NCBI RefSeq assembly: GCF_964204865.1
Contig: NC_135263.1
Location: forward strand, 10,833,426-10,897,425
DNA length: 64,000 nt
From: Styela clava
Taxonomy: Eukaryota > Chordata > Ascidiacea > Stolidobranchia > Styelidae
Direction of reading: 5' to 3'
A program made the translations under genes and the position numbers. Each line of letters starts with the position of its first letter. The stretch's first letter is position 1. Positions 21,676 to 58,700 of this stretch are shown in pieces. Below the pieces are notes generated by a model. It was not told where the DNA came from, made no database searches, and was given only the letters and a program-made list of their open reading frames with translations.

Positions 21676-21922
21676 GTGGGACGAGATAGGGAGGATGAGG
21701 GAGATAAGGCTGTGGGTCGAGGGTAGGAAGGCTGAGGGAGAAGGGGCAGTGGATCGAGGATAGGAAGGCTGAGGGAGGTAAGGCGACTGGTCAAGAATAG
21801 GAGGGCTGTGGACGATTGCGCAGTGGGTGAGGATAGGAAGGCTGTGGGAGAATTGTTTTGAGGGCAGAAAGGCTGACGGTCAGTGGGTCGAAGATAGTAA
21901 GGCTGAGCGAGATAGGCAGTAG
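21676..21922 (+). repeat. G-rich minisatellite, second direct block
   Basis: Six or seven diverged units of the form GTGGGTCGAGG-TAGGAAGGCTGAGGGAGA. The array stops in mid-unit at GGCAGTAG where the BEL/Pao LTR begins and resumes with GTAGGTCGAG at 39998. The last four bases (GTAG, 21919-21922) are the left copy of the target duplication. Confidence 0.8.
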
Positions 21923-22771
21923 TGTAACAGCCGTTCTTTGTGACCTGGACGACACCGACTGCACACTAGATATTTATTAACAGTTCGATAACGCGGTCTT
22001 TCAAGCCCCAAGTTTGTATCTTCAATCCAGAAAATCACACAACTCGAAGTATACAGTTGACACGGTTATTTTAATACAAACGTAAAAACAAATCAATACA
22101 AAATACTTGCAATAAATAAATAATCGTACACAATTCGGCCTTCTCAACTTTATGAACACATTTATCAAACATAGTTAATTAACAAGTCTAACCAAATTAC
22201 TATTAAATAACTTGCAGCCTTCAAATCAGAAAGAGTTACAAATTATAACATACCGAATTTGTCTGCTATTCCAGGCTTAAATTATCATAAGTTGAACATG
22301 AAATCATTCGTCAATGAAATCCGAACAAATCAATTAAATAAACTATACCTGTAAAAACAACCACAAAGGCAATCTAATGTTCATATAAACATCCCTAAAC
22401 TAGGCCTATGTGGAACCGCCATATTCTACAATATTTAATCGTCCTACTGTCAAAACAGAAAGTCAAGGTCGCTGAACAATTTTAACTCATTTACAAATTA
22501 CACCGAAACGTGCGCCATTCTCTGCAAAAGTAAAGCGCTATCTAAAGCAAATTACCGAAACTATCCTTGTCTAAGCGAGACATGTCTGGGCAAGCAATTG
22601 CCCCCGAAGACTCTCTCAATTGTTTCGTAACAAAGTGTGTGGAAGCACACTGTCAATCAAGTGAAATTACGGCGTCAACAATAACAAATAAATCACTACA
22701 CAAGTTAAGTTAAACGGACGCAATGTTTGAGTCAATAGAAAAATCAAGTGAATGCAATTCTCGATGTAACA
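21923..22771 (-). repeat. BEL/Pao 3' LTR
   Basis: 849 bp, TGTAACAGCC to CGATGTAACA on the plus strand; read on the minus strand it starts TGTTACATCGAG. It aligns along its length with 30628-31250 plus 39795-39997, with scattered substitutions and small indels (roughly 5% different by eye). The insertion is therefore not recent. Confidence 0.92.
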
Positions 22772-22784
22772 TTCCCCCAGCCAG
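22772..22784 (-). other. Polypurine tract next to the BEL 3' LTR
   Basis: On the minus strand CTGGCTGGGGGAA directly precedes the LTR start TGTTACA. A purine-rich run here is where plus-strand DNA synthesis begins in LTR retrotransposons. The run has two pyrimidines at its 5' side. Confidence 0.65.
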
Positions 22785-22856
22785 ATGTTGGAACCCAGTG
22801 AAAACATCTTACACACAAATTTCTTACATCGAGAATATCACACACTTGAAAACATT

Positions 22857-23949
22857 TTACTCATTAACTCCATGAATCAAGCACAACTTAGCAATTGGCC
22901 TTCTCAGTAAACCCTTGCATGTCTTCACAGTAACTTGACGCACAGCTCCAAGTTTATCAGGTGTAGTTTCCATAACACGTCCAGTCTGCCACTTCCCTCT
23001 GGGTATAGTATTGTCCACAAGTAGCACAATATCGCCAACTTCCATATTACGTTCTTTAGAGGTCCATTTATGTCGTGTCTGAAGTGTGGGTAAGTATTCT
23101 TTGGTCCATCTGATCCAAAACTGATCAGCTAAATACTGAATTTGTTGCCATCTTCGTCGAGTGTAACAATCCTTTTTGTCGAATATGCCGGGAGGTAAAT
23201 TACTTGCAGGATTCAGTAATAGCAATAGATTTGGAGTGAGTGGCTCATCATCCTTCGGATCAAAACGTATTGGATTGATGGGTCTAGAATTCAACTGTGA
23301 TTTCACTTCACAAAAAATAGTAGCCAAAGCTTCATCTGACACCAACTGATCGTGTGAGAGAGTAATCAAAATCTTTCGAACTGATCGAATTAATCTTTCG
23401 TAACATCCTCCAAAATTAGAAGCAGTAGGTGGATTGAATTGGAATTTAATATTCTCCTGACGCAAAAATTGTCCACCTTTGCTTGAATTCCAAACTTTTA
23501 TTTCTTTACGTAGGATTTTATTTTCGGCAACGAAGTTACTACCGTTGTCACAGATGAACTTGAATGGTCTACTTCTACGTGCAATAAATCTTAACGCATT
23601 TATGAATGAATCTGCATCCATCGAGTATGCAACTTCCAAGTGTACGGCACGAGTTGTCATGCATGTAAATATACAGCCCCACCTCTTAACAGTGCTTCGT
23701 CCTGGTTTTCACAGGAAAATGTCCAAAGTAGTCCACTCCAACATATGCAAATGGGCTTGCACCTGGTGTGACTCTTTCTTTTGGAAGATCTGCCATAATC
23801 TGTTTACTCACAGGTGAACTTCTTCTTCGACAAACCATGCATTTTCTGATAACAGATTTCACCATAGCGCCTCCTTCAAAAATCCAAAATCGTTGTCGCA
23901 GAGAAGTCCATGTACTTCCCATACCAAAATGATGTGTAGGTAGATACAT
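22857..23949 (-). pseudogene. BEL/Pao integrase, frameshifted
   Basis: Two overlapping reading frames. The upstream piece (23686-23949) has the zinc-binding part with paired cysteines (CMVCRRR) and the start of the catalytic core at VGVDYFGHF, giving the first Asp. The downstream piece (22857-23660) has TTRAVHLEV, the second Asp in CDNGSNF, and the Glu in GGCYERLIRSVRKIL. It ends with the BEL-specific C-terminal region (GDIVLLVDN, LRRPIAKL) and a stop at 22857. All three catalytic acids are present, but a frameshift near 23.67 kb separates the first from the other two. Confidence 0.85.
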
Positions 23950-23968
23950 GATGTTCTCTTATAATCAT

Positions 23969-24570
23969 CTAAGTTACATGATGTTTGTGAGGGAGTATAA
24001 TCGGATGTTTAACATCAAAATCAACCGGTGCATTTCTCAATTTCCCACCAACTCTGATGAAGCCATCTTTCACAATCGGATTGAGTTTATGCAGGAAATT
24101 TAAAATCTTCAATCTCTTCAGTACTTGTTTTCCAGATGTACTTCTATGATTGCCTTTCAGTAAGGCATCAAGGACTTCGCCAAATTCTTGCCTTTGTATA
24201 TTTTTCAAAATATCATCACCAGCAACTTGCAATTCTTCAACTCCAAGTTGCTCATTGCACTTAAAATTCTTCTTCTTCTCATGAAAGTAGTCTTTGAATC
24301 GAATCATTCATGCACTTGCCTTTTTCAACTTATACCATGTTGAGAAATATGAAATGAATTTATCCATGGCTTCAAAGCAAAATCAGTAACATAATTCGCA
24401 ACAACTCGTGGCTTGCATCTTACAAATTCATCAGGAAGCTCAGGTAACTGCACTGGCGGTTCAGGCCAATGTTCCTCTTGCTCTTGGAGAAATGATGGTC
24501 CTTTTAGCCATCGTTCATCCATCAATGACTGTACCGACAACCCTCTGGATGTATCATCTGCCGGATTCAA
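23969..24570 (-). pseudogene. BEL/Pao region between RNase H and integrase
   Basis: Two frames (24325-24570 and 23969-24307). The first carries NPADDTSRGL, a conserved BEL/Pao block after RNase H. The second carries GGKLRNAPVDFDVKHPIILP, the usual lead-in to the integrase zinc-binding domain, followed by HKHH. The frames are offset, so at least one indel lies between them. Confidence 0.75.
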
Positions 24571-24591
24571 ATCTGTAGGTACATATCTCCA

Positions 24592-26200
24592 CTACAAAGC
24601 ATTCGATCCTTCTTCAATCTTTGCAAGTCGATTTGCCACAAATGTTGGAAATCTTCGTGATGTATTAATAATACCTAAAAGCACGGAAGTTGAGTCTGTC
24701 CAAAACAGTGACTCTATCTCTTCAAAGTCCAATTCACGTCTCAGGAATAAATCTAATTTAACTGCAAGAGCTGCAGCTGTCAACTCCAGTCGTGGTATTG
24801 AAACAGTTTTGATGGGTGCAAGTCGAGCTTTTCCTAAGAGAAAGGCAACATGAATCTTCCTAGTTTCATTTATCAGTCGCAAATATGATACAGTTCCATA
24901 AGCAACTGCAGAGCCATCTGCAAAATGGTGTATTTGACGAGTCACAATATTGCCAAAACCAGAAGGCGCAAAACATCTTTGCATGAATATATTCTCAAGT
25001 TCAAGAATATCTTCGAGCCATCTGTTCCACAATAATTTTTCACCATCCGATATTTCATCGTCCCATCCATAATTATTTCGACATAGCTGCTGCATCAGAA
25101 TCCTTGCTTTAAGTATTACAGGTGCCACTATTCCCATCGGGTCAAATATCGAACTGAGTACAGACAAAACCCCCCGTTTTGTTGCGGGTATTGATTTCAC
25201 ATTAACATTAAATCCAAAACAATCTTATTGGATATTCCACTTTATTCCGAGTACTCGATCGATCTTTTCAGGTTCTAAATTTACACTTAACGCAGTCTGC
25301 TCTGTCTTTAGCAGGAATCTCAGACAGAACTTCAGGATTGGAACTTTTCCACTTTGCTAAATGAAATCCTTTTTTCTCCAGCAATTTGTTCGTTTCTCGA
25401 ACAATATGAATTCCCTGGTCTACAGTAGATTCAGGTAATCACCAACATAAAAATTTCGCTCCACTCCTTTGACAACTTTTTCGTCAAATTCATCTTAATG
25501 ATCTTGAGCTGTCTTTTTCAGACTCCAATTAGCACAAAATGGAGATGAGACGCTACCAAATATGTGCCTGACCATAAAATATTCTGATGGATCCTGTGAC
25601 AAATCACCTCCAGGCCACCACATAGATCGCACTTTCACCTGATGGAACATTGCTTCGATGTCAGCCACCCTAGCTATTTCATGTTGTCTAAAGCGGAGAA
25701 GCGTTCCAAGTAGAGAATTTGCCGAATCCGGACCTCTCAATAGTTGGTCAAGGAAGTCCAATATTCATACAACGTGATGCAGCGTCAAAGACAACGCGTA
25801 CCTTGCCTGGCTTTTGTTCAGAAAACACAGGGTGATGAGGCAAGTACCAAACTGCACCTTTCCGGCCAACTTTATATTCATTCGGGATACGTTTTGCAAA
25901 TCCAAGACTAATATATTTCTCCATAGTATCACAGTACTTCTTTTTCAAAACAGGATCACTCTTCAATTTTCGTTCAATGTACTTTAAGCGTTTCATCGCA
26001 ACACTTCGATTATCTGGCAAATTAGGACATCCTGCTGGCTTCCATGGCAATGGTAACTGATAATGTCCGTCCACGATCTCACCTGAATATTCCATCAACT
26101 GCAATGCATATTTGTCTTCCTTAGACATTGATGAAATAGGCGACAGGGAAGCATCTTTAAAATCACTTTCCAACAAACTTTTGATTTGCTGACTCAGCAA
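24592..26200 (-). pseudogene. BEL/Pao reverse transcriptase and RNase H, broken
   Basis: The first piece (25748-26200) ends with the fingers-domain motif PGKVRVVFDAAS. The second (25495-25761) has VADIEAMFHQVKV, with the first catalytic Asp. The active-site box at 25438-25449 reads YVGD where the family has YVDD, so one catalytic Asp has become Gly. Frameshifts and stops follow. The last piece (24592-25200) has SSIFDPMGIVAPV, RNase H Asp in HHFADGS, Glu in IPRLELTAA and Asp in LFWTDST. This is the BEL/Pao type of RT-RNase H. It is inactive as read. Confidence 0.85.
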
Positions 26201-26215
26201 GTCTTCCTCTTCCTC

Positions 26216-26940
26216 TTAAACGCAATGAATGTGAACATCACTGTTTCTCTCGTGAGATAAAGCTGGTCCAACCAGTGACCATCCTAAAATGTATTTCTTC
26301 GCCGAAGGTTCATTGTGTTTCCCTCGTCTCTCATCCATTGTCCAAAACACTTTAGGGACATTTACCCCAATCATCAACATCACATCTTTACACGGCAGAG
26401 TAGGAATCTTCAATCCCTTTAAATGTGAATAATTTTGTACATCAAATTGTTCTTCATTAGCTTTTACAGGCAGTCTATTAACCGTTAGCACACAACACTC
26501 TCTCTACCATCAAGTGACTTTACAGTAAAATCAACCGCATAGCCATCTTGTGAGGTTGGTACAGCATTCACAGTTGTCAACGAAAACTGCGTTTTCTTGC
26601 CCCTCAACTTCAATAGATTAAGAAGTCGCCTACCACACAAGCAGGCAGTAGACTGAGTAGAACCTTCATCTAGGAATGCATATGTTTCTATTTCTCTCCT
26701 GTTAGCACAGATCTTGACAGGTACAATATTTAAAAAACATCCTGCTGAGATTTTTGAAGTCGCATATGCTTCAACTTTTGACTCATGCATACCAGCAGCA
26801 TTTCCTGTCAGGGTACATGTCTCTTGTTCTCTTCTGTGCAATAAAGTATTATGTTTCAACCTACACCCGTCAACAGTACAAGCAGGTGGTTTGCGGCAAT
26901 TTCTCGACATATGACCATGTACAAAACAATTGTCGCACAA
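26216..26940 (-). pseudogene. BEL/Pao zinc knuckle and aspartic protease, frameshifted
   Basis: The frame at 26485-26940 opens with a perfect CX2CX4HX4C knuckle (CDNCFVHGHMSRNC) followed by the BEL-typical KHNTLLH. It then has AFLDEGST, matching the catalytic D-x-G-S/T of the retropepsin-like A17 family. The overlapping frame at 26216-26491 continues with VMLMIGVNVPKVFW and YILGWSLVGP, a conserved block leading toward the RT. The two frames overlap by seven bases in different phases, so the polyprotein is interrupted just after the protease. Confidence 0.83.
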
Positions 26941-28831
26941 TCTTGCTTTCTAACAATCTTCAAGCGGTCACCGTTTGACTTCTGCAGGAATTCGTAACAG
27001 TCGACAAGTTTGTGTGACGTCTTCAAACATTCAGGACAGATATCTCTTCCCTTTTCAATATGTTTGCACTGGTAACACTGCTGTCAACAGCTGAAGTCAC
27101 AGCAGTAGAATGAGCGTGAATCTTTCGCCTATTCGATGATTGAAATCGTAAACGATATTGCTATTCTTGCTCCCTTCGAGCTCTCAAGGCTTTTCCATAA
27201 GGCGTATTTGCAGCAGCAGCCCTTTTCTTCATAAATCGAACAAGATCTCTAAATCTCACTTCTTCATCTTGTCCATCTAATTCTGCCACCGATTCTTCCC
27301 AGTTGTTCCGCAACTTGAGAGGAAGTCGTAATACGAGGGACAAAATAGTATTAAAATTGTCCAAATCCCCAAAATATTTCAAATGTGTCAAAATGACTAA
27401 ACATTCTAATGTTTGAGAAAGACGTAACAAGCCTTCGTTATCTCCAGGTTTCAACCATGGTCCATGGCAGTGCATAATCAGTTCCCTTGCATCACCTTCA
27501 CAGTATTGTACCAAATATGACAACTTTGTACTTGTATCATGTACTCTTCTATCAATATCCAGATTGAAGTTAGTGATAAACCGGACATATTCAGTCTCTA
27601 TTCTACTGAAATGCAATAATTCAGGTCAAGGTCTATCAATTCCGTCTTGCAACATAGATGCCATATTACCCAATAAACTTTCCACATTCGGCGATGATTG
27701 ATCGTGCGTGTTTCCTTGTTGTGGGATTTGTGCTTCTGTGTACGGAGATCGATTTAATGGTTTGTACCGATCAAGGTATATTCACATTCACCGCTTCTCT
27801 TATATTAACAGGAGAAGCAGGTCTTCTAACATTTAATACAGGATTTTCCACTCTGACTCGAGATTGTGACAACAAATCTGATGCTGGCAATTTAGCTCTC
27901 ACATCAGGAGGCTTTAATACTGGAACCACTATTTCATTCAACTCTTGGATTTGATTAGGTGAATGTGAACGAGACATATTTTCATATAATGACATACCTT
28001 CGCCTCCCTGAGAAGCATTTTCCCGTACATCGGCTGCTATACAGGCTGATTCATATGCATGCTGCAATTCCAAAAGCTTTGTTCCACTTTGAGCATCTTC
28101 TTCAATTTGTCTAGCTCTCATTTCGGCATCACGTTTAAGCTTTTCAGCCTTCATTTGAGCTTATCGCTCTTGGTTTTCTGCATTCTACATAGCTTCACGC
28201 TCCAGCCTCTTAGCATTTTCCATAGCTGCATGTTTGAGTCTTTGCGCTTCTTGCTCTAGCCTTTCAGCTTCAAGTTGGGCATCTAATTTCATTTTTTCTA
28301 CTGCCATTTTCGCATCATCTTCTCGCTTTTTTGCGGCATCCTTTTCTACTTGCTGCCAAATACTAGCATGAGCAAGTTCTCTGATGGCAATGGCTTCTGT
28401 ACGTTTAGTACTCGAACTTGAAATGGCACACGAGCCACGGGAACTTTTTCCAGAAATTATAGAACGTGCTTTAGGGCTATGTGTCGATGATTTATGGCCA
28501 TCAACGTCAGACATTTTGATCCAATCGCGTAATTGCACATTGAATTCTTGAAACTCGCGCAGTTCACACTAGAAAAATTCACTGACATTTCTCCGATTTC
28601 TTCAAAACGTAAAGTAGCCTACTCACATGAATTTCATGAGCATTTGAATACTCTGTGAACCGTTTGTCAATGTCAGCACTTTTCAACTCAACAAATCTAG
28701 ATTTTTGTAGTCTGACAGTATATATTTACGGTCTGACCGTCTGACATAAGTCTCTCAGGATCTTGATATAATTCCTTTATACGAGCACGTAACTCTTCTA
28801 AATTTGATTTTGAAACAGATTGCGCATCCAT
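26941..28831 (-). pseudogene. BEL/Pao gag, broken
   Basis: The likely start is the ATG at 28831 (MDAQSVSKSNLEELRARIKE). Next comes an alanine/glutamate/lysine-rich coiled-coil region (28185-28538 and 27771-28154, frames separated by a stop), then the DUF1759-type gag core at 27161-27616 (YLVQYCEGDARELI, ESVAELDG). A first CCHC knuckle (CPECLKTSHKLVDC) can be read near 27.0 kb, out of frame with its neighbours. This order is standard for BEL/Pao gag. Several indels and stops make it non-functional. Confidence 0.8.
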
Positions 28832-28950
28832 AATGTACAATCACAGTGCTCTTCAAACAATGTTCAACAGTAGGATGATTTCTTCAAATTTGACGATTTA
28901 CCGAACTCCTGCCGGCATTCGACGATACTCTATTTATACACTATCAAACG

Positions 28951-30590
28951 CAGTGGCGGCGCGTGGTCATTTTGACAACCGGGGCAAGCTACTGCGGGAC
29001 CAAGTCACCCCCATCTACGGAGACAGGATGAGCGCTATAAGTTCTCCCATCATTTTATGAGTATAAAAACCATTCCATCGGTAACAACCAATCGGCAAAA
29101 GCGACAATTTTTAACGATAAGAAAGTGTCTTTAAAACCGGTCCAAGTCAAGGGATTAATAAATATAGACATAGTTTATTTTGAAACCTCTTTCAAAAGGA
29201 AAGGCAATATTTACCAAGATAAATACAATGACATATTAACAGAAACTTCGAAAAAGCAGACAAAACCTAAAATAAGGTTTAAAACGTTACTATGAAGAAA
29301 GGAAAGGTAATGCAAAGATAAGGACATGCGTCGCTCACTCATAGATATATATGCTGCTAGACTTCTACTGCTTGAACATATATGCAACACGCCGCGGTTT
29401 CTTGGAAGCAAAATGCTCAATAACGCGCTGATTAAAGTCATGCATCCCAGAAATAACGTCTCTGTGAATGGATAAAAAAGCCAAGGAATTTATTCTATCT
29501 TGCTTCATTGTGTTTCTGAGATACGTTTTAATACGCTTCAGCGTGCTGAATGTTCGCTCTGCGTCGGCGGAAGAAATAAGCGTCGTCAAAATGATGTCCA
29601 GAAATTTTGCAGACGCCGCAAAGGTAGTTACTAGAGTGTTATCTATGAGGAACCCATAGAGCGCGCAAGTTGATGTGATGTTCAAAAAAGTTTGATTGGT
29701 GTATATACATCGCAATTCATTTTCCAATTTACCCACGTTTATCATGGGGTAAAATTTGGAGACAGTACAGTCACAGCATTCTTTTGCAGACAAAATCAAA
29801 CGCTGCGTTGTTTGCCCGCGGCGTAAAGAAGCACTCCATGTGTCGTCGTATTTTATTGTTTCCCGGATACGAGATACAGCATCGCAGAAGTCTGAAATAC
29901 ACGACTGCACAGACGCTCCATCCATTAGTCTTGACTGAAATGCGCCGTATAATACATCCACGTGATGGAATATTGTGGAGAAAAAAGCGAGAAAAAATGA
30001 AAACTCACCATCTTCTAGCAGACGCTTTAGACCTGCCGCCTCCCTCACAGAGCGTTCGTCCCAAACCGGAGAGCTCTGAATGCCATTGAAACACTCAATG
30101 AGCTCAGACCTAATTTCGGACACGCCCTGCACCACGCGTGATTGGAAGTTCCAACGTGTTGGTGCACAAGCTGGTAGACGGCGGCTACATATCTGGCGAA
30201 GGAGGTCAGAGCGCTTCGGCGAAACGAAAAAAAAATGAAGAAAACCCCGAAACATTTGCAAAAAATATTCGGACGAGAGGGGTATCAAGACACATATTTT
30301 TAATAACGAGGTTAAATTGGTGTGCATAACAATGTAAAAAGCATGAGGAAAATCTTCTTTTATATAAACTTGAACACCATGTTTCGACCCACTCATGACT
30401 GCCGCGCCGTCATAAGTTTGAGCTATCAATTTTGACTTCGCGTTGTAAGGCTGTAACACTTCTTTCAGTACAGCCGATATCCCGCAAGTCGTGCGATCAA
30501 CGATTGGTACAAAGCCTACAATATTTTTTATTATACCGAAAAAACAACCGGGGCATTGCCCCGGTTGGCCCTATTGACGCGCCGCCACTG
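28951..30590 (-). mobile_element. hAT element in the BEL leader
   Basis: The ends are CAGTGGCGGCGCGT (28951-28964) and its reverse complement ending in CACTG at 30590. A second matching block AACCGGGGCA lies about 30 bases in from each end. It separates about 120 bp of BEL leader on the gag side from 37 bp next to the LTR. TCAAACG occurs directly left of the element and again three bases beyond its right end, which may be a decayed 8-bp target duplication. At 1.64 kb it is too short for a full hAT and holds only the C-terminal part of a transposase. Confidence 0.85.
29365..30459 (-). pseudogene. hAT transposase C-terminal fragment, ZMYM1-like
   Basis: 364-codon frame. Near the start, AQTYDGAAVMSG is the RNase H-like catalytic Asp block of hAT transposases. 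CAPTRWNFQSRVVQ fits the region before the insertion domain. The C-terminus has SSADAERTFSTLKRIKTYLR and NSLAFLSIHRD, the hAT dimerisation region. This pattern is that of the TTF/ZMYM1-type hAT group. The N-terminal zinc finger and first half of the protein are missing, because the element's end is only 131 bases upstream. It is an internally deleted derivative, not a host ZMYM1 gene. Confidence 0.88.
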
Positions 30591-30627
30591 AATTCAAACG
30601 TTATATGCATAAATTCGATAACTTTAA

Positions 30628-31250
30628 TGTAACAGCCGTTCTTTGTGACCTGGACGACACCGACTGCACACTAGATATTTATTAACAGTTCAACAACGCG
30701 GTCTTTCAAGCCCCAAGTTTGTATCTTCAATCCAGAAAATCACACAACTTGAAGTATACAGTTGACACGGTTATCTTAATACAAACGTAAAAGCATATCA
30801 ATACAAAATACAATAATTGAACACAATTCGGCCTTTAGAAAGCCTACTCAAATTTATGAACACATTTATCAAACATAGTCAATTAACATGGTAACCAAAT
30901 TACTAAATAACTTGCAGCCTTAAAGTCAGAAAGAGTTACAAATTATAACATACCGAATTTGTCTGCTATTCCAGGCTTAAATTATCATAAGTTGAACATG
31001 AAATCATTCGTCAATGAAATCCGAACAAATCCATTAAATAAACTGTAACTGTAAAAACAATCACAAAGGCAATCTAATGCTCATATAAACATCCCTAACT
31101 AGGCCTATGTGGAACAGCCATATTCTACAATATTTAATCGTCCTACTGTCAAAACAGAAAGTCGAGGTCGCTGAAAAATTTTAACTTATTTACAAATTAC
31201 AACGAAACGTGCGCCATTCTCTGCAAAAGTAAAGCGTTATTTAAAGAAAA
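30628..31250 (-). repeat. BEL/Pao 5' LTR, proximal part
   Basis: Matches 21923-22546 of the other LTR from TGTAACAGCC through GCGCCATTCTCTGCAAAAGT. It then stops at a T-run where the LINE's poly(A) tail begins. No tRNA-complementary primer site starting TGG is visible in the leader directly beside it (30591-30627). Confidence 0.9.
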
Positions 31251-31685
31251 TTTTTTTTTTTTTGCCAAATTAAATTCCAGAGTTAATATGACATTATTAA
31301 ATTATATTTTTTTTAAGCCAATTATATTGTCAATTTTTTTTTTTTGGAAAACAATTGCATGCATTAAGTTCCGATTAGTTGAAAAGGAATAAAACAGTTG
31401 TATAAGCAATTAATTTTACGTATGATATCCAATGTTGATAATCCAGTATTCGTCATATATCCATTTGTATTGAACATTGTCCACATTTCATCAAAGGCAT
31501 ATCATTATAATGTACATATAGAGAACTTGCACGGGTCACGTGACTTTGTTACTGGACGGCAATGAAACAAAAACGTCCATTTGGCTCCTGTCAGTTGCAA
31601 GTCGGATTATACGTTTCCGTTTTGTTTGGCTGTTGAAAATGGTTATTTCGTATTGTTCCGTTGGCTGTACGTATAGTATAGAGTC

Positions 31686-33849
31686 CAGTGGTTCCCAAAC
31701 TCTTTGTACAATCGCCCCTCTATAGTAGTTTATTCAACTTCATCGCCCCCCAAGACTACAAAAAAATGTAAAGTCAGAAACGAATATATTACAGACCAAA
31801 TAAGACGACAAATCATAGTTTATGGTGTGTTTTAATGAGATGGATGAGCTTGGTGCTTTTTAGCGAGTTTTTCATTATTTGGAGACATTCTCGTCAGACA
31901 CAAACCAAAATCACCCCGTTTACTGATGGAAAGGCGATTTCGTTGTTTTGATAGCAATAATAGCACGGCTGAAAACCCCTTTTTCACCATATAAGAGGTC
32001 GGAAGTGAAAGAATCCAGGGTTCTCTTCAAAAACCTCCGTGTACTTGCCCTGTAGCATTTAACTCCCTCAATATTCACCCCATTGCACATTGAAATAATG
32101 AAAACAAAGTTAATTTTCCCAAAATTATAATATTAATTTTCGTACAACTCATTCATCCCTACAGCCTGATGACCTGCACCGAAATACATGATATATAACG
32201 ATCTTCGGTAAAATTCATCCTCAATTCTTCATCCGAGGCCTCCACATACCTATCACCATTCCATAGAATAAAAATCAGCCTTTGTTTTAGATTCGTGGAC
32301 TCGGATGTGAAAAAAATCGTGACTGACTATCGACTACGGCCCAGGGGTCGGCAAATTTTATGTTGCTCACGGGACAAAATTAAGGGTTGCTAGTCTTTGC
32401 GGGTCGCATATATTTTTTGAAAGTTAAAAATGGAACAGCGCGCAAAAACTGCGACACGACAAATCATGAACTCAGCTCAGTCGTCTTATTAAAAAATTAT
32501 TACAATGACATTTAGTGTGACACTGTCTTGTTGCTGCATCAAGCTTGATAGCTTTACGACGCCAAGATTGGAACATTTTCTAAATGGGCATCACTAATCC
32601 TAGTTCTTTGCTTGTTCTTTGTAATGTTCAATTTCGAAAATAATTGTTTGCACAAATATGTACCTCCGAACATCGAAGTGAATATTTTCGCATGGTTTGT
32701 GAAATATTGCTAAAGATTTTTTTAAGGAGATACATTCTTACAAAAATTAAGCAGTGATGAATTTCTCGAATAGAATATGAATTTTATTTCCTTATTGCAT
32801 TGCAATATATTTGAATATTTACTGCGATATTGAACCCCTGCACTTAGCATCAACTTTTCTGCGTGTTGCCATTTGTCTAATTATAATTAAATTGTAGGCT
32901 CGTTAAACTAGCTGTTCACTAAATTGCTAGGATATAATATAATTTTGTGTAATTTTTTATAAACGTGTCTCACGATGAATTCTGTTACGTAAAAAATGTA
33001 ATTTACTCCTCGAGCGTAGATTATAAATAAAATTGATTTATCGTCAAAACCGGAGTTTTGTCTGTATAATGAATGTTTCCCCGGGCATAGACTTCCATGT
33101 TTACTTCGTGACATTGGCCAATCAGCAAGATGCAAAAATAAACTTACGGTAACAATGCCCACTTTCGCATCCGCTCAGACACTTTTCTCACTCAGACAGA
33201 TTTTCAGGCGTGGTCGTAAACATTACACCTCATTTTCGCATTTTTGAATTCTATTTGTTAATTTTTAGTTGTTTTTCGGAAATTTAAATATAATGCAGAT
33301 AATTCAATGATCACTTTGTTTTCCTAGGAGTTTCAGTTTAATTCCAGTAATCAAAAATTAGTGTAGAAATAGCTGTGATAGACTAGGCTAAAATTCTTTA
33401 CCGGTACTTTTAAAAACATGTATGAATTAGAATGATAGTTTGAAACAAATACCTCATTTTACAGGCGACAACTCGCAAAACCACTCTTAAATAAGCACCG
33501 AAAATTTTAAAATGGTAAAGTATAGAGAGAATTTTTCGGGTTCAAAGGTGGGGAAAGCCCATTCAGTGAAGCGTCCCGGGCCAGATCATTTTACTCCGGC
33601 CGTATTTTGCCGACTACTGGGTTTCGCAAACTACCGTACCTTACTGCGGATACTAGTCCAGCAATCCTTTCGCGTGTGATAATCGTCCATGTGAATCAAA
33701 CCTACGAAAGAACGCAGACTACAGTAATCAAGTACACGATGGGCTGAACAAAAACACGTTTCGCGAAATCGCCCCCTTCGACTTTTTCGCCCCCCTCTGT
33801 GTCGTTTTCGCCCACCGGGGGGAGATATCGCCCACTTTGGGAATCACTG
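31686..33849. mobile_element. hAT-like element inserted in the THAP left arm
   Basis: The ends are CAGTGGTTCCCAAACT (31686) and TTTGGGAATCACTG (ending 33849), inverted with two or three mismatches. Both subterminal regions are rich in ATCGCCCC/TCGCCCCCC runs. The uninterrupted right arm shows the original site as GTATAGTATAGACAAC. The left junction has GTATAGAG two bases before the end and the right has GTATAGAC, so an 8-bp target duplication with one mismatch is likely. No transposase frame is seen. Confidence 0.78.
32342..33619. mobile_element. Possible further hAT-like element nested within
   Basis: Starts CAGGGGTCGGCAAA (32342) and ends TTTTGCCGACTACTG (33619), inverted repeats with two mismatches. 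No matching 8-bp flanks were found, so it could instead be part of the enclosing element. Its right half (about 33190-33600) is related to a repeat in GalNAc-transferase intron 3 (58890-59270), which shows this stretch is a dispersed repeat. Confidence 0.5.
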
Positions 33850-34249
33850 GTATAGACAACGAAATGGATCTTCAGTTATATTCCACTGTTTTCAAAAGAT
33901 CCGGAACGTCGCGCAATGTGGATATCATCCATTGGCAGGACTGCTGGGTGTCAAGTCCAGAAGCCATCTCACTTGTGTTTCACTGTTTGCGGACAGCACT
34001 TCGTTGATGGTGAGTCATCATGTGCCGTTATCAAATTTTTAAATATTCATAAGCTCCCTCATTTCAATGGAAAGCAGATGACAAACTACTGTTATTGGTA
34101 GGCTTAGGCGTAGGCCTACTTGCAGACTTGACTCGTGTAAGGTATTAATCAATAATTGCCATTAGGTATTGTTTTCCTAGTTAGCAGGTAATCTATCAGT
34201 AAGTGTGAAAAGTTGAATAGATAACTAATGTTTAACGCCAGTGCTAAGG

Positions 34250-34420
34250 CAAAAAATAACCAGAATTCAATTGAATTCTCCATCTAAGAATACGCTCGCC
34301 ACCGCATCTCTGATCCCCCTGGGAGTTTCACAGGTTCCAATCCCATGCGGGGATAGTTATGTGCGAGGGGATTGCAGCTCTCCTCCCACTGAGGGTGGTT
34401 CACACGACCGCTGGTCGATT
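34250..34420. repeat. tRNA-like/SINE-like block in the fold-back arms
   Basis: CAGGTTCCAATCCCATG at about 34329 resembles an RNA polymerase III B box (GGTTCNANNCC). It is followed by a GAGGGGATTGCAGCTCTCC and CACTGAGGGTGGTTCAC block. The inverted copy near 35900-36010 keeps the same layout (B box reading GGTTTCAATCC). No good A box and no tRNA cloverleaf were found, so this may be a SINE fragment captured by the arm. Confidence 0.3.
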
Positions 34421-36279
34421 ACGACATCTCCCACCATCCAGTATATGCTTCTAAAACAAATAACTGGCTAAGTAATCCCGACATAGAATGGTAATCGTGC
34501 GACGTAGCACCTTGCAATATGTCCCCAACCACAGATAAATTCTATCATGAAAACTTTTAAAATTGGAAGAAATCTTCATTAATGGTCAGAAGGTGTTGTC
34601 TGATTGTTTTGTTAGTTAGCAGGTAATTTATTACTGATCTGATACACAAACTTGGTAGTGTTGGCACTGTCAAATGATGATTAGTGTTTAATTTATTTTC
34701 AGGAAAAAAGGAAGATAACCCATTATCAGCTGCTTATATGTCCCATCGATATTTGAATTTTCGCCATCCCCAGAGAGGAAGAGAATAGTTAGAAAAAGGG
34801 GGATTTTGAAGAAAGGCAAAAAGCAGGACCATTTCAACAAATTCTGTTAACTTGCATGCGTTGCAATGTTAACTTGCAGTTGTTAGCATAAACATTTAAT
34901 GTATCTTTCGACTAGACCTACCACACTTTAAAAAAGCCTCCTACACCCCTTTTCACTAGAACCATAATACTGTAAAATATTTGATAGAAATTACCCCCGA
35001 GGCATCATATCTTCCATTTGAAAGGGCTGTCGAGGCAGATACATTTTTTACTCTAAATTATGGAATGTTACTTCCAGGTTATCTAATCCTTGCTCATAGA
35101 TATCTTGAGGTTAGTGACTCCAACTGACCCATGCATGCCACACTGAAAATTCTCTTGTGTACCCATAAAATAAGGCTGTTGGAGCCTTCAGACCTTGAAA
35201 ACAGTCGAATCTGAGCACGATGGATTCATGTGAAACACGTAATATGCATTTAGAAGCAAAAATATCCCATCCTGAGCAGCACCGATCCACAACCTCCTGC
35301 CTATGGAATCAAAACATTAGACAAATTGGTGTACTGTGCGCATTCACAAATCTTTGCGAATCAAGTGTGCCTTTTGACTAAAGAAAATTTAGCATTGAAA
35401 TGGTCAATCTCAATATCAACCTAGTATCTGCAGACAAAACCAATTGTTTTTTAAAAATACATTTTTGATGTGCTTTATTTTTCAAATATAATCAATATAT
35501 AATTTATAATTACTGTAAAGTGTGTGATATATTTGGTACCATGAATACCATTTGCAAATTAGCTTGGGTTACACCCCTCTCAAATAAAAGTCATATCTCA
35601 TAATATTCCATCTATATCTATTCCATGGTCGCACCCATATCTGTAAGATAATGGATACAGATAGATTTTTCATAAAATCTAACGATCAAGGAGTGCGAAA
35701 TTTAGGTCCATATCCCACCACAGCCACTAGTCGTAAATGAATTTGATTCCGGGTAGCATATCTTTTTTACCAATGCACACAATAAAAAGACATTTTGGAT
35801 CAGTTGTACAAGCACCATTAGGATAGGATTTATCTGGGGGGAGCCAGTTATTTGTTTTCAGAAGCATGGACTTGGATGGTGGGGAATGGTCGTAACCGAT
35901 CAGCGGTCATGTGAACCACCCTCAGTGGGAATAGAGCTGCAATCCTCTCGCATCCTCTCTGGGATTGAAACCTGTGAAACTCCCAGGGTGATCAGAGATG
36001 CGGGGGGAGCGTATTCCTAGATGGCGAATTCAATTGAATTCTTGTTATTTTTTGCATGACCACTGGTGTTAAACTTTATTTATCTATTCAATAGATTACC
36101 TGCTAATTAGGGAAACAATACCTTATAGCAATTGATTATTAATTCCTTACTGTCTTACACAAGTCAAGTCTGCAACTGCAAGTAGGCCTACTAATAACAG
36201 TAGTTTGTCATCTGCTTTCCATTGAAATGAGGAAGCTTGTGAATATTTAAAGAAATTGATAACAGCACACTATCACCAC

Positions 36280-36510
36280 ATTATCACTCACCATCAACGA
36301 AGTGCTGTCCGCAAACAGTGAAACACATGTAAGATGGCTTCTGGACTTGACACCAAGCAGTTCTGCCAATGCAATATGCAATAGATAATATCCACATTGC
36401 GCGACGTTCCGGATCTTTTGAAATCAGTGGAATATAACTGAAGATCCATTTCGTTGTCTATACTATACGTAAGGCCAACGGAACAATATTAAATAACCAT
36501 TTTCAACAGC
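36280..36510 (-). pseudogene. THAP-domain exon, right arm (inverted copy)
   Basis: On the minus strand this repeats the left-arm exon without the hAT insert: SKDPERRAMW, then CFTVCGQHFVDG, followed by GTGAGT. Differences include GTTGGCTGT to GTTGGCCTT (the second zinc Cys is lost) and an extra 12-15 bases (TATTGCATATTGCAT) after the MW. The two exons point toward each other across the 1.37-kb centre. Confidence 0.7.
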
Positions 36511-36779
36511 CAAACAAAACGGAAACGTATAATCCGACTTGCAACTGACAGGTGCCAAATGGACGTTTTTGTTTTATTGCCGTCCAGTAACAAAGTCACG
36601 TGACTCGTGCAAGTCCTCTATATAATTATTTATTTTATATTAGCATGGAAAAAGAAGATTTCAAAAATTTAAACAGAAAATTCGAAAACCTATCATGCTA
36701 CTAGGATTTTCTTTTTCGCTGTCTACGATATGCAAACGTGTATATAGACAAACCTAAATAAATACAATCTAACTTCCTT

Positions 36780-39700
36780 TATTTTCAACTCATTATCGAT
36801 TTTTGTACCAAATCATCCACAATTTCATCAAGTGTTATTCTTTGCCTATCAAAATTAGTCATTAATCTAATTACCCCAAGGAATTTACATTTGAAAATAG
36901 CTCGCAAGTTACATTGCATTTGGAATACATCATCATATTTGACACTATTCCTAAATTCCCATATGGCTGATTTTCCACATTGAATGATTAATGCTTCTGC
37001 TTCACTATTAATATTATTAGCAATAATTTTGTCACAATTGATTCCCCTATATTACACCACTGCCAAAAATCTAATATCCAATTACAACAGCAAAATAAAT
37101 GATTACAGGTTTCTTCAATTTCATTACGAAATACACATTTTCCATTTTTGTCATCAAACCAATATTTTGATTTGTCACCTGTATGTAGGCCATTATCTAA
37201 GATAGAATTTTATACTTATTGGGGAGTTTATATTGCCAAATTTTTGACCAGGCAATTGGACTATTCAAATTGAATTTTTGTTTAATGTACATATCATGAT
37301 GTGTAGCAATTTCTGTAATTTTTCTTATTTTCAATAAACTACTTATTTTTTTGGTGGAGAAATCGGAGTTAATATATCTATCGATTCCAAGTCTATTTTT
37401 GGTGAAATTATAATTTCTTGCTAGAATTTCCTTCCAGCTTATGGGTACATTGCCCCAAACCTGTTGGATTTCATTTGAGCATCTATATAAACAAGAGAGC
37501 TATGCTCAAATATATGGACACGTAGCGCCACCCAATGGCAATAATTTTGATGACGTCATAGCGAAAAAAAAAGTAATAGCCTTTTGGAGAAATAGCCTTT
37601 ATCTTTAACCACTGAAAATTTCAAAGCAATTGGTCCAGTATTCGAAGAGAAAAGCGACTTTTTAAAAACGTGTCAAAGAACAAGAACAACAACAAGAGAG
37701 CTATGCTCAAATATATGACCACGTAGAGTCACATAATTTTGATGACGTCATAGCGAAAAAAAAAGTAATAGCCTTCTGGAGAAAATTTTTATTTTTAACC
37801 ACTGAAAATTCCAAAGCAATTGGTCCAGTATTCGAAGAGAAAAGCGACTTTTTAAAAACGTGTCAAAGAACAAGAACAACAACATAATATTGAAACGATC
37901 GTTATGTCCACTACGTGTCCAATAAGAGAGCTTTCCTCTGTGATCCCCAATTTGATCAATAGAATATATTCTATTCGTTAAATTATGTACAGAATTATCC
38001 ACAACGTCAGCTACCGAAATGACTTTAGCTTGGATCCATTTAGATGAAAATCAAAAATGCTGCTCCGAGATTAAAGGATTGTACCATAATATTTCATTTT
38101 TTACCTCTGTATTATTAAAGAAATGATTTCTCTCCAAATGGATGTCCTTAAATGAGTTGATGATGGCTGTATAAAAATTTGGTATGGTTGTTATTTTCTC
38201 AAATCGGATTGTCAAATACAGACATTCTAAATTTTCTTTGGAAAAAATATTACAATAATTATTAATATGATAAATGGCTCTTCTACTCTATGGCCTATTC
38301 TGGTGTTTGAGTATTTTGAATATTCATTTGACCTGAAGAGCTTTTATTTGGCTTCTGAAGTCTAACATATTCAAACCTGCGGATGCGAAATTACCAGGTG
38401 TAACTTGTCTTGAAACTAGTTGAGATTTATTATTCCAAATGAATTTCCATATTATTGTTTCTAATTTTCGAATTGAGTTCTCTGGCATAATTTCATAATT
38501 GGCAATGTGCCATACTTTAGACAACATTAATGATTTGACAATAATAATTTTTCCTATCATTGATAAATTTCGCCCCTGCCATAAATTTACTACATTTTGA
38601 ATTGAGTTTATGATTTTCAACCAGTTTTTATCCCTCCATACGATATTGTTTCCTATATAAGCCCCAAGAATTTTCAGCTCTTCTTGGATTTGAATACCCT
38701 TGTATCTTGTATGAAGGTCCCAAGTTTAGCCGTTTTTCTGACCCACACAACATTATGTTGCATTTTGGAATATTTATTCTCAAGCCCGTAGCTTTTTCAA
38801 ATTCTGCCATTAATTTTAATACTTCGTCTATGGATGGTAAACTTTCTACTGTGACAATAGTGTCATCCGCAAAACCTTTATATTTCTCCCTAGCACCTGT
38901 ACAATTTTGAAAACCTATAATTGCTCTATTGTATCTGATGTTGGATGCTAACAATTTTGACATTATAATGTATAAATGTGGGGCAAGTGGACAACCTTGT
39001 CTAACTCCTCGTGTTATACTAAATTGCTTTGATAAATATCCATTTGTTATTATTTTTGCATTGGTGTTGTTAAAAAGGGTATTGACCCATCTAATGAAAT
39101 AATTGCCAAAATTAACCTTTTTTAATATTTTGAGTAACAAAACTCCATCAACAGTATCATAAGCCTTTTCTTGGTCTATACTGAAAATTATTAGCGGTTG
39201 GTTTTGTTTATTTGCCCAAAATATGTCATCTCTTATTGTTAATAAATTTTCATGAATCGTTCGTCCTTCAATAAATCCTGTTTGGTCATGATTTATTATA
39301 TCAGGCACTGGCAGTACTGCTTTCATTCTCATGGCCAAAACTTTTGCGATTAATTAATATTCAATTTTTTATGTCATTTTTGTCCCCTTTTTTTATAAAG
39401 TAAAGTTATTAAACCAAGACTTGTGTTCTGAGACAGACATGATTGTTTATGATAACTATTTTAAATTTGCAAGAGAATTGGGCGTAATTGTTTCCAAAAT
39501 TGAACAAAGAATTTTTTTGTTAGACCATCTAGGCCAGGGGATTTATTCAATTTCATTTGTTTGAAAGCATACTCTAATTCTTCTTCTGTTAATTCACTAT
39601 CCATTTCTTGTTTTTGCTCATTTGAAACTTTTTGCTGATAATTATTCAATAACCAATTTTGACTATTAAAGTCCAAATTTTCATCTCTTTGATAAAGATT

Positions 39701-39780
39701 TTTATAAAATTTGACTTGCTCTTCCTGAATTTCTTCACATGTGTAAACTAAAGTGTTGTCAGGCTTCCTTAAAGATTTGT
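36780..39780 (-). pseudogene. LINE reverse transcriptase (ORF2 remnant)
   Basis: Pieces in order on the minus strand: 39461-39676 (LNKSPGLDGLTKKFF, the entry of non-LTR RTs); 38628-39338 (HDQTGFIEGRTIHENLL, FSIDQEKAYDTVD with the first catalytic Asp, RGVRQGCPLAPHLY, and FADD with the other two); 38324-38620 (LSMIGKIIIVKSLMLSKVWH, the post-RT thumb block). A C-terminal ETCNHLF-type Cys/His region lies near 37.1 kb. The style is L1/Tx1-like. About 120 bases are disordered between the first two pieces, and stops elsewhere make it inactive even though FADD is intact. Confidence 0.85.
37489..37925. repeat. Two tandem ~200-bp units with a unique tail
   Basis: Unit 1 (37489-37691) and unit 2 (37692-37881) both run from CAAGAGAGCTATGCTCAAAT through GATGACGTCATAGCG and ATTGGTCCAGTATTCGAAG to ACAAGAACAACAAC. 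They differ by a few substitutions and a 15-20 bp gap. A tail TAATATTGAAACGATCG-TATGTCCACTACGTGTCC follows, and the same tail stands alone at about 40733-40788. Tandem units plus a fixed 3' end recall a non-autonomous Helitron-like or SINE-like insert; it interrupts the LINE coding region. Confidence 0.7.
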
Positions 39781-39794
39781 CTGTCTAAGCGTCT

Positions 39795-55790: not shown

Positions 55791-58700
55791 ATGAGACTTA
55801 CGAAAAGGTCGCGGTTGAAATCCGTTGGACTTGTGCTTTTCGGGGCCACGTTTTATTTCGTGTTCTTGAAGAGAACTCCAGACAAGAATACGTTGCTTGA
55901 TTTTCAACGTAACGTCGGTGATGACAACGACGTACTTCAACTTGACAAGAAAAATCTTTTTGACCCCGATCACGAAGATGAATCGGTTATCAACGCCCCA
56001 GATGCCTTGCAAAATGTAAATGCAGGGAAGAAGGTTTTTAATGAAGCACCCATGTTGAATAAATATGTAAGTTATTTACTTTCTTTTCCTAACTTCCTCA
56101 AAGACAAAATTCAACTTACTATGGTAATTAGCAAGAAACAAACATTCGTTTAGATCGTGTTCAGAGATGATGCTATTTATTCCAAATAATAGTAGTTTTA
56201 GTTGGATAAAAGTTAAATTCCACAAGTATCGACAACCAAAAGCTTGGCCATCCTTCGATTTATTTCAACTGATTTCAAACTAAATGGTAAAACAGGGAAT
56301 TTCGTCTAGTAAACCAAAATGTGTTGTTTCCAACCATATGATTTTTGACCTTGAAATTTTGCCAAAGATGTTGTATGAATAGTCGCACAAGGCTGGCAAG
56401 ATAAGATGGCAATCACTGTTGAATGACTTCCTTTAACTCCCGTTCTCGGTATCTAGGGTTAATCAAATAGACATCAATAGTTTCGCAAAAAAAATCCACA
56501 AATAATGTATGCACAAGTTGCACCCGACCGAAGACTGCTTCTCGATATTTAATAAATTTTCATACGCAATATATTGGCGGCTCGCAAAACAGGAACGAAT
56601 TCATAGAGATCCTTCGCAAATTTTTGCATGCAAAAAACGATTAATAAAATTTCATATAAAAAATAATTACATAATGACATTATGACAAGTCAGTCTAAAA
56701 TCGGTTCCGCGTGGCCACACGTATATTGTTCGGCAATAATTGTAATCAATATAGGTTTTGAAACCGTTTATGCTCATTCGAACGCATGAATGTCATTGTG
56801 ATTCATATTTAATAAATGACGATGCATGTTTCATTTCATATTGATTCAATTAATTTATTTAGAGAGTATAGAAAGGGCATCAAAGACATTGATAATTTTA
56901 ATATATATTCAATTTTAATGGTTAGATTACTGCCAAAATCTAGGGCATTCTACCATTTGCTATTTTGAGTAATATGTACGGTGTATTTGTCAATCAAAAC
57001 TAACGCATGATGGATTTTTTACGAATAAACAGTTTTACACGCATCATACGTAATCATTAGTAACATAATGATTCAAATATATAACGTAAATATAAACAAA
57101 ACATTTCAATGACGTCATACACTTTGCTCCGAATAAGGCTCTTCACTGAATGCTACTCTTAATATTTATTGACTGGGTTTTTGAGAAGCCACAAAATTTA
57201 TTGATGAGTCATTGAATAAAAAATTTGTTTGGAATATTTCAAGCATATTGGTACATACTGAAATGAAACACAAAGTATACGTCTCTGTATAAAAGGCCTT
57301 GTAATAAAAATCATAACATTGCGACCTGAAGTGTATCCTATGATAAATATTTTCATAATGAAACACCTTTGTAGTGAACATCTTTACGGACGTTTATCCG
57401 GAATATAACACATGATGCATGATGAATCAATAAAATTACTTTCTCTTTTTGAATAACTTGCATTGTAACACAGTAACTGTAATAAAATGATTATTTTTCG
57501 CCACGTTCCATTACATAACGTCAGCGTTATTATGCGTTTCTGATTACACAATCAATCGGAAAACAAGAAAGCAATGATCAAATATATGCACATCAAAACC
57601 AAAACGAACAAGTACGGGTATCAAGTATTTTACACAGTACAAGTACCGTAGCCTTCCCCACTTCGATTGACCAATCACAACGATTGCGAACGCCCACGTG
57701 AAACCGCAAGGTGCGCCCTAATTTTAATTTCTATGACGACATCTTCCAAAAAATCATGGCGAAAAACGAATCCCAAAGACCCCACAAAAATTTTTGGCGC
57801 AAGTAAAACAACAACAATCTTCAGCCACTGAAGTTTCAATTGTTTTTATCGACTTTGAGTCCGTTATTATTCGTATCCTGTTGGTTATATCATCTTGAAA
57901 TTACAGATATGTTTGATTGTATGTTTATACCGTTTTCAGTCGCATGAATTTTACACTGCCAGCGAACTGACGCCGTGGAGGAGTAAGCCCTTACCGTCGC
58001 CATCAAATCCTGGAGAATATGGCAAAGGATATAAGATCGACAAACCTTCCGAAATGGAATCTCAGTTGATCAAAGAGGGGTGGGAACGACACGCCTTCAA
58101 TCAACATATATGTGATAAAATTTCTGTCCATCGGTACCTGGGAGACAAACGCGATCAAGAGTAAGTGTAGTATTAATTCATATCAGGATTCCCTGACATT
58201 TGACTCGGCCAGACAAAATCCTGTAATAGATGGGCGGTTTACTAACTTTTATTTATCGGTAACCCTTGTCTTAATGCCAGATATTATCTCGGATGTATCC
58301 GGAGCTAAGCTTGTTACATACATATAACTAGTTTCCACTACAAGTGTAAAATTCCTTTTCATTCTTTATATTATTTTTCTCACTTACACTCAAATGATAA
58401 ATATCATTAGCATGTATTACCAAAAAATCAGCATGTGTCAGGAAATGATTTTTAATGCGCTCTAGAATTTTAATATAAAATATATCAAATGGACTACATG
58501 GGAAAGCCAATGTACATGTTTCCATTTTATAAACATAGCGATTTTTATTATAGGTGCAAAGACCGAAAATGGAGGAAGCCTTTGCCAACAACGTCTGTTA
58601 TTATAGTTTTTCACAACGAAGCTTGGTGCACTTTATTACGAACTGTTTACAGCGTGTTGGAAACTTCACCCAAAGTATTATTGAAAGAAGTTATTCTTGT

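What the first reader, a model, noticed from the sequence alone, without database searches (positions are those of the whole stretch)
31516..36624. Fold-back element with a THAP DNA-binding exon in each inverted arm
Arms of about 0.79 kb are inverted copies, and both include the THAP exon with its splice donor. Terminal repeats of P-like transposons are usually short and non-coding. Here the arm contains the protein's DNA-binding exon, so the element carries two convergent THAP exons but no visible catalytic domain. It could produce a THAP-only repressor-like peptide, or hairpin RNA from the arms feeding small-RNA silencing. I know of no described family with this layout, though I could not search.
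Basis: partly seen in the sequence, partly recalled or inferred. Interest (0 to 1): 0.75.

Follow-up and report, generated by a model that had tools for sequence, protein, structure and literature searches.

The report
Fold-back transposon duplicating its THAP exon
This is one copy of a large family of dead-gene "jumping DNA" in an animal genome, in which the start of the jumping enzyme's gene was copied in reverse onto the other end of the element, and the resulting fold-back form then spread to many places; it is a striking new variant of something already seen in fruit flies rather than a new kind of system.

Summary
Arms of about 0.79 kb (31516-31682 plus 33850-34469, split by a hAT insert; and 35842-36623) are inverted copies, each with a THAP exon and donor. 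It is a family: 39 other copies of the middle were scored in the source genome, all 20 fetched have both arms, and the exact 28-base tip occurs 260 times (control 0). Inner arms of 21 copies split into a left and a right clade (42 of 42), so one inversion preceded amplification as a unit. Empty sites of one copy show that insertion duplicates TATA, unlike P elements. A YqaJ relic, a THAP exon and a weak DDE relic suggest an ISL2EU-like (PHIS) parent, not found intact. The THAP exon is open in 2 of 38 arms, so the repressor peptide is not supported; hairpin RNA was untestable. Best reading: a non-autonomous, ISL2EU-derived fold-back family moved in trans. Nearest precedent: Drosophila Galileo, with transposase sequence recruited into long terminal repeats (PMC4168063).

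The parts
31521..36618 (.). whole fold-back element (GAGAACTTGCACG...CGTGCAAGTCCTC), including a nested hAT
   Evidence: ends compared with family copies
31517..31520 (.). left TATA (target duplication)
   Evidence: duplication shown for copy L036
36619..36622 (.). right TATA (target duplication)
   Evidence: duplication shown for copy L036
31516..31682 (+). left arm, tip part (95% complementary to the right-arm tip)
31639..31683 (+). left THAP exon 1, 5' part, from ATG (MVISYCSVGCTY...), interrupted by the hAT
31686..33849 (+). nested hAT-like element (CAGTGGTTCCCAAA...TTTGGGAATCACTG), duplication GTATAGAG (31676-31683) / GTATAGAC (33850-33857)
33850..34009 (+). left THAP exon 1, 3' part, ending at donor GATG|GTGAGT
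   Evidence: THAP match of the same stretch in copy L060
34010..34469 (+). left arm, intron part; about 34290-34465 resembles a separate interspersed repeat
34703..34788 (+). likely THAP exon 2 after acceptor TTTTCAG, outside the arm (DGKKEDNPLSAAYMSHRYLNF...)
   Evidence: read directly; not tested by a profile
34960..35124 (+). weak relic of the DDE transposase exon
   Evidence: not significant by profile
35591..35655 (-). place of the family's YqaJ relic (approximate); in this copy all but its edge is deleted
35842..36623 (-). right arm (inverted copy of the left arm)
36292..36500 (-). right THAP exon 1, ATG to donor, frame broken

Best explanation
A non-autonomous fold-back DNA transposon family derived from an ISL2EU-like element (PHIS superfamily: THAP-DDE transposase gene on one strand, YqaJ exonuclease gene convergent on the other). 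In one ancestral copy the right end was replaced by an inverted copy of the first ~0.8 kb, which carries the left tip, THAP exon 1 and part of intron 1. That copy lacked a working transposase or soon lost it. Because both ends now carried a working tip, it could still be cut and pasted in trans by a transposase made elsewhere, and it spread to what 260 exact tips suggest are more than a hundred sites. The THAP exon in the arms is a passenger. Shown: family, arm anatomy, one inversion before amplification, insertion at TATA with duplication (one copy), broken THAP frames, YqaJ relic. Inferred: superfamily placement of the lost transposase, mobilisation in trans, and the break-repair origin of the inversion.
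For: 39 other copies of the middle at 87-93% identity (40 scored of 280 candidates, one being the window). 20 of 20 fetched copies have inward-facing arms. 260 exact tips with 0 control matches; in the 100 listed, 29 inward-facing neighbour pairs closer than 12 kb against 1 of other orientation, 11 of the 29 at 3.0-3.4 kb. Inner-arm tree separates 21 left from 21 right arms (42 of 42); left-right distance is the same within a copy (0.0988) and between copies (0.0994), against 0.049 left-left and 0.045 right-right. Empty sites of copy L036: 10 matches, 9 with CTATAG, one with CGATAG; filled form CTATA-GAGG...CCTC-TATAG. THAP profile 31.7 bits over cut-off 23.9 in copy L060. YqaJ relic 20.7 bits against a best of 10.9 in 300 random sequences of matched composition. 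DDE relic against L058: 1 of 500 or 0 of 500 random sequences reach it. Resident elements with convergent DDE and YqaJ genes exist (L058, L059).
Against: The DDE relic is not significant by profile (6.2 bits against 10.2 for the best of 300 random sequences) and L057 and L059 do not match it. Pfam does not see YqaJ in the relic itself. No intact partner with the same tips was found: 15 YqaJ matches were listed, 14 of the 15 were fetched, and the nearest (L051, in L057) was only 50% identical over 32 residues; in L057 the YqaJ and DDE genes are divergent, not convergent. Published ISL2EU elements have AT duplications in an A|AT|T context and usually start GG (PMC4482050, passages); this one sits at TATA and starts GAGG or AGAGG. 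The outer tips do not separate as cleanly as the inner arms (best split 39 of 42), so some tip exchange occurred. The empty site was tested for one copy only.
Confidence: 0.78

Rival explanations
1. A P-superfamily (Galileo-like) fold-back element: THAP domain plus long terminal repeats.
For: THAP exon and long arms resemble Galileo, with terminal repeats of about 0.3-1.2 kb and recruitment of internal sequence (passages and sections of PMC3573991 and PMC4168063).
Against: By eye, no 7- or 8-bp flanking duplication in the 17 copies with both ends read; a single TATA is duplicated in L036. A YqaJ relic is present, not known to me from P elements (recalled).
Confidence: 0.08
2. The arms are kept because they do something: a THAP-only repressor peptide, or hairpin RNA feeding small-RNA silencing.
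For: Two convergent exon-1 copies per element; left and right arms still about 90% alike. One of 38 arms (L029 right) has the four zinc ligands in one open frame.
Against: Exon open to the donor in 2 of 38 arms, and in L029 the core between the ligands is out of frame. Majority sequences of both arms are frame-broken. RNA not testable here.
Confidence: 0.08
3. Two separate elements inserted in opposite orientation, or a local inversion, at this one place.
For: No duplication is visible at the window's own ends beyond TATA.
Against: Same layout in 20 of 20 fetched copies on 12 contigs, with a shared left/right split.
Confidence: 0.02
4. The arms derive from a host THAP gene captured by a transposon.
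For: THAP genes are common in animals (recalled); 56 THAP matches were listed in this genome (150 of 270 candidates scored).
Against: The THAP exon begins about 120 bp from the tip in a repeat with a YqaJ relic; the THAP domain of the resident ISL2EU-like element L058 is similar (37% over 43 residues, E 4.5e-5 in a three-locus search).
Confidence: 0.04

Closest known systems
ISL2EU transposons (PHIS superfamily; PMC4482050, passages read; PMC9179366, passages)
   Same: THAP at the start of a transposase gene, a second YqaJ gene, AT-rich target with a duplication that reads as AT or TATA.
   Different: Target context T|AT|A, not A|AT|T; tip GAGG or AGAGG, not GG; arms about 0.79 kb where terminal repeats of 6-259 bp are reported; no coding capacity; right end replaced by an inverted left end.
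Galileo, Drosophila (P superfamily; PMC3573991 and PMC4168063, passages and one section each; PMC3688188, passages)
   Same: Fold-back form, long repeats, recruitment of internal and even ORF sequence into the repeats (copy 147, more than 500 bp), other transposons inserted in the repeats, non-autonomous majority.
   Different: P-type transposase and 7-bp duplications; recruited sequence varies between copies, whereas here the same arm with a THAP exon is shared by the 20 copies read.
Tetris, a Foldback element of D. virilis (PMC4079207, seen in search listings with the start of its abstract only)
   Same: Fold-back anatomy.
   Different: Not examined further here.

Membership tests
ISL2EU (PHIS) | THAP domain at the transposase N-terminus | tested here: met
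   THAP 31.7 bits in copy L060; the window copy's exon is frame-broken
ISL2EU (PHIS) | second gene with YqaJ domain | tested here: met
   relic only: 20.7 bits against best random 10.9; below Pfam detection
ISL2EU (PHIS) | DDE_Tnp_4-type catalytic domain | tested here: inconclusive
ISL2EU (PHIS) | AT duplication at A|AT|T | tested here: inconclusive
   single TATA in empty sites; AT duplication possible, but in context T|AT|A
ISL2EU (PHIS) | terminal repeat usually begins GG | tested here: not met
   GAGG or AGAGG; reported as usual, not universal, in PMC4482050; hence called ISL2EU-like, not filed as a member
P superfamily / Galileo | 7- or 8-bp target duplication | tested here: not met
   (8 bp for P recalled; 7 bp for Galileo)
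P superfamily / Galileo | P-type transposase | not tested
   no P-type profile was searched
Kolobok | TTAA duplication | tested here: not met
   TATA, (TTAA rule recalled)
Fold-back elements (structural class) | long inverted terminal arms with a middle, mobile as a unit | tested here: met

The most novel reading that the evidence does not exclude
A fold-back lineage of PHIS/ISL2EU-like transposons in which an inverted copy of the transposase gene's own THAP exon replaced the other terminus, giving a family with two transposase-gene starts facing each other that out-multiplied its parent; the symmetrical ends may transpose better, or the convergent gene starts may make double-stranded RNA that restrains the parent.
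Probability: 0.25. Interest if true: 0.6.

Novelty: new variant of a known kind. Interest (0 to 1): 0.42.

Why it matters
It shows the fold-back route (an end replaced by an inverted copy of the other end, followed by amplification) in what looks like a superfamily other than P, with a partial order of events: a repeat captured in the intron before the inversion (it is in both arms), then inversion, then amplification, then hAT insertion in this copy; the frame was lost by the time of amplification. It gives a natural test of whether symmetrical long ends help a transposon multiply, and it warns that THAP-exon counts in such genomes can include many dead transposon arms.

Tried and rejected
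P-element reading: rejected on the target site. Two-insertion or local-inversion reading: rejected by the family. Host-gene reading: no support. THAP peptide: rejected for the family at large. tRNA/Rfam identity: none for the window or the intron repeat. Tip pattern in viral contigs: 0. Autonomous partner: searched through YqaJ, DDE_Tnp_4, THAP and a 65-residue THAP query; none with the same tips plus intact genes was identified, but the scored lists were capped and most places were not read. Several one-frame 65-residue matches may be chance frames: L009, which I could read, shows the core in the wrong frame; the others were not read. C9:6907080 (75% identity; THAP over cut-off) is the best lead and was not read. 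The arm and hAT trees with extra copies were drawn, then the script stopped with a division error, so its hAT distances were not printed.
Full report
OBSERVATION. The inverted arms are real. The left arm is 31516-31682 plus 33850-34469; the right arm is 35842-36623 on the minus strand. The outer 167 bp are 95% alike; the inner part is lower (about 82-88%, depending on gap treatment). Between the two left-arm pieces sits a hAT-like element, 31686-33849, with the 8-bp duplication GTATAGAC (left copy GTATAGAG plus two extra bases). Each arm holds the ATG and 5' splice donor of a THAP exon.

FAMILY. The source genome (376.6 Mb, 379 contigs; unnamed, an animal by its gene content) could be searched. 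The 1.37-kb middle gave 280 candidates; the 40 scored all matched, one being the window itself. They were chosen by the middle and not by the arms. All 20 have arm sequence on both sides in inverted orientation, 2.85-3.9 kb from end to end. The exon is partly deleted or interrupted in the right arms of L024, L031 and L042 and in the left arm of L029, and in a few copies a tip is incomplete. The exact 28-base tip occurs 260 times (149 and 111 by strand; backwards control 0). Of the 100 tips listed, 29 neighbouring pairs closer than 12 kb face inward and 1 does not; three of the 29 are one tandem repeat.

ONE INVERSION, THEN SPREAD. On the inner arm (window 33850-34469 as reference), 21 left and 21 right arms, the window's included, separate completely (42 of 42; support 1.0 for the left clade, 0.648 for the right). 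Left-right distance within a copy (mean 0.0988, n=21) equals that between copies (0.0994, n=420), while left-left is 0.049 and right-right 0.045 (n=210 each). So inner arms have not been homogenised within copies, and copies share one fold-back ancestor. For the outer tip the separation is incomplete (39 of 42), and the window's left tip groups with right-type tips, as does L042's, so tips have been exchanged at times. One further copy (L060 with L061) has an arm close to the root between the two clades, next to a YqaJ relic; it may be a remnant of an older fold-back.

INSERTION SITE. Both ends could be read in 17 of the 20 copies. They show nTATAGAGG, a few with point changes, and by eye the flanks beyond TATA do not repeat. 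For copy L036 the flank pattern TATATACTCGCN{1,12}GTCGCACC matched 10 times, 9 with CTATAG and 1 with CGATAG, against CTATA-GAGG...CCTC-TATAG in the filled site. Insertion therefore duplicates TATA, or AT inside TATA; sequence cannot tell these apart. Only this copy was tested.

GENE RELICS. In L060, 57 residues of the exon read in one frame and match THAP at 31.7 bits over a cut-off of 23.9. The family majority sequence (3348 bp) has on its minus strand a 111-residue frame containing CDYCGLVEIKCP; a profile of six resident YqaJ stretches scores it 20.7 bits against 10.9 for the best of 300 random sequences of matched composition. Pfam's own YqaJ model does not report it. A 55-residue plus-strand stretch aligns with the DDE region of resident element L058 (29% of 59; 1 of 500 or 0 of 500 random sequences, depending on BLAST's composition setting), but a three-member profile does not find it significant, and L057 and L059 do not match it there. 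Order and orientation (THAP plus, DDE plus, YqaJ minus) are those of resident elements L058 and L059; in L057, which holds the nearest YqaJ, the two genes are divergent. This points to an ISL2EU-like parent; target context and tip letters differ from those reported for ISL2EU (PMC4482050, passages), so I do not file it as a plain member.

CODING. Exon ends were found in 38 of 41 arms examined (20 left, 20 right, and the window's right; the hAT-split left arm of the window was left out). The exon is open to the donor in 2 of 38; in one of these (L029 right) the four zinc ligands share the frame, but the core is scrambled. The majority sequences of both arms are frame-broken. Shared features are a TATAG doubling (two units in 27 of 38, one in 5, other forms in 6) and the form TTCCACTG (36 of 38). 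The doubling lies at the site where hAT elements insert and could be an old excision footprint; that is speculation.

MECHANISM. Shown: mobility, single origin, broken frames. Inferred: an end was replaced by an inverted copy of the other end during repair, and transposition was served in trans. No intact partner with the same tips was identified, so the enzyme may be extinct here, may come from an unread copy, or may belong to another ISL2EU-like element.

PRECEDENT. Galileo shows recruitment of internal sequence into terminal repeats (PMC3573991, section 7), and in D. willistoni over 500 bp of ORF in copy 147, plus other transposons inserted in the repeats (PMC4168063, section 10); its authors called the ORF overlap a unique trait of Galileo so far. 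My searches for a fold-back ISL2EU (12 of 12 papers listed, 20 of 152 listed) showed none in the listed papers, and one search listed 9 papers with at least two of ISL2EU, YqaJ and THAP; this is not proof of absence from print.

Going back over the calls I corrected the number of other middle copies (39), the number of contigs (12), the exon-2 end, and the list of copies with damaged exons, and added the divergent order in L057.

Noticed in passing
31686-33849; L009-L018: hAT-like elements have their left junction at the same GTATAGAC site of the THAP exon in ten other loci (chosen because tip and hAT matched together; 40 of 1380 candidates scored). In the tree the window's hAT groups with a solo hAT (L019) and not with most of those, suggesting at least two independent hits of one site.
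   Followed up: partly
34290-34465 (family positions about 597-775): Intron part of the arm is a separate interspersed repeat, found without the rest of the arm in L010, L014 and L040 at 77-79%; it carries a GGTTCCAATCC box that recalls a tRNA-derived SINE but has no Rfam match.
   Followed up: partly
21920-31252: Probable BEL-type LTR retrotransposon (LTR-like pair 21920-22553 / 30625-31252, 92%; DUF5641 in 22857-23708), with a hAT transposase frame (29365-30570) apparently nested in it, ending 264 bp before the fold-back element. BEL is recalled, not tested.
   Followed up: no
G000 C2 17244996, 17262782, 17280568: Three tip pairs, each 1592 bp across, spaced exactly 17,786 bp: a tandem segmental repeat carrying a short fold-back.
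   Followed up: no
L060 with L061: Arm near the common root of left and right arms, beside a YqaJ relic, followed by a reverse-transcriptase frame: possible remnant of an older fold-back.
   Followed up: partly
C9:6907080-6907259 of the source genome: THAP exon over the Pfam cut-off and 75% like the arm's exon: possible relative of the parent; letters not available.
   Followed up: no
38324-39784; 57859-61285; 625-1896: Reverse-transcriptase-like frames (recalled); frames of a probable GALNT gene (Glyco_transf_7C in 60863-61282); a 423-residue frame that I recall as acyl-CoA-thioesterase-like (no Pfam match).
   Followed up: no
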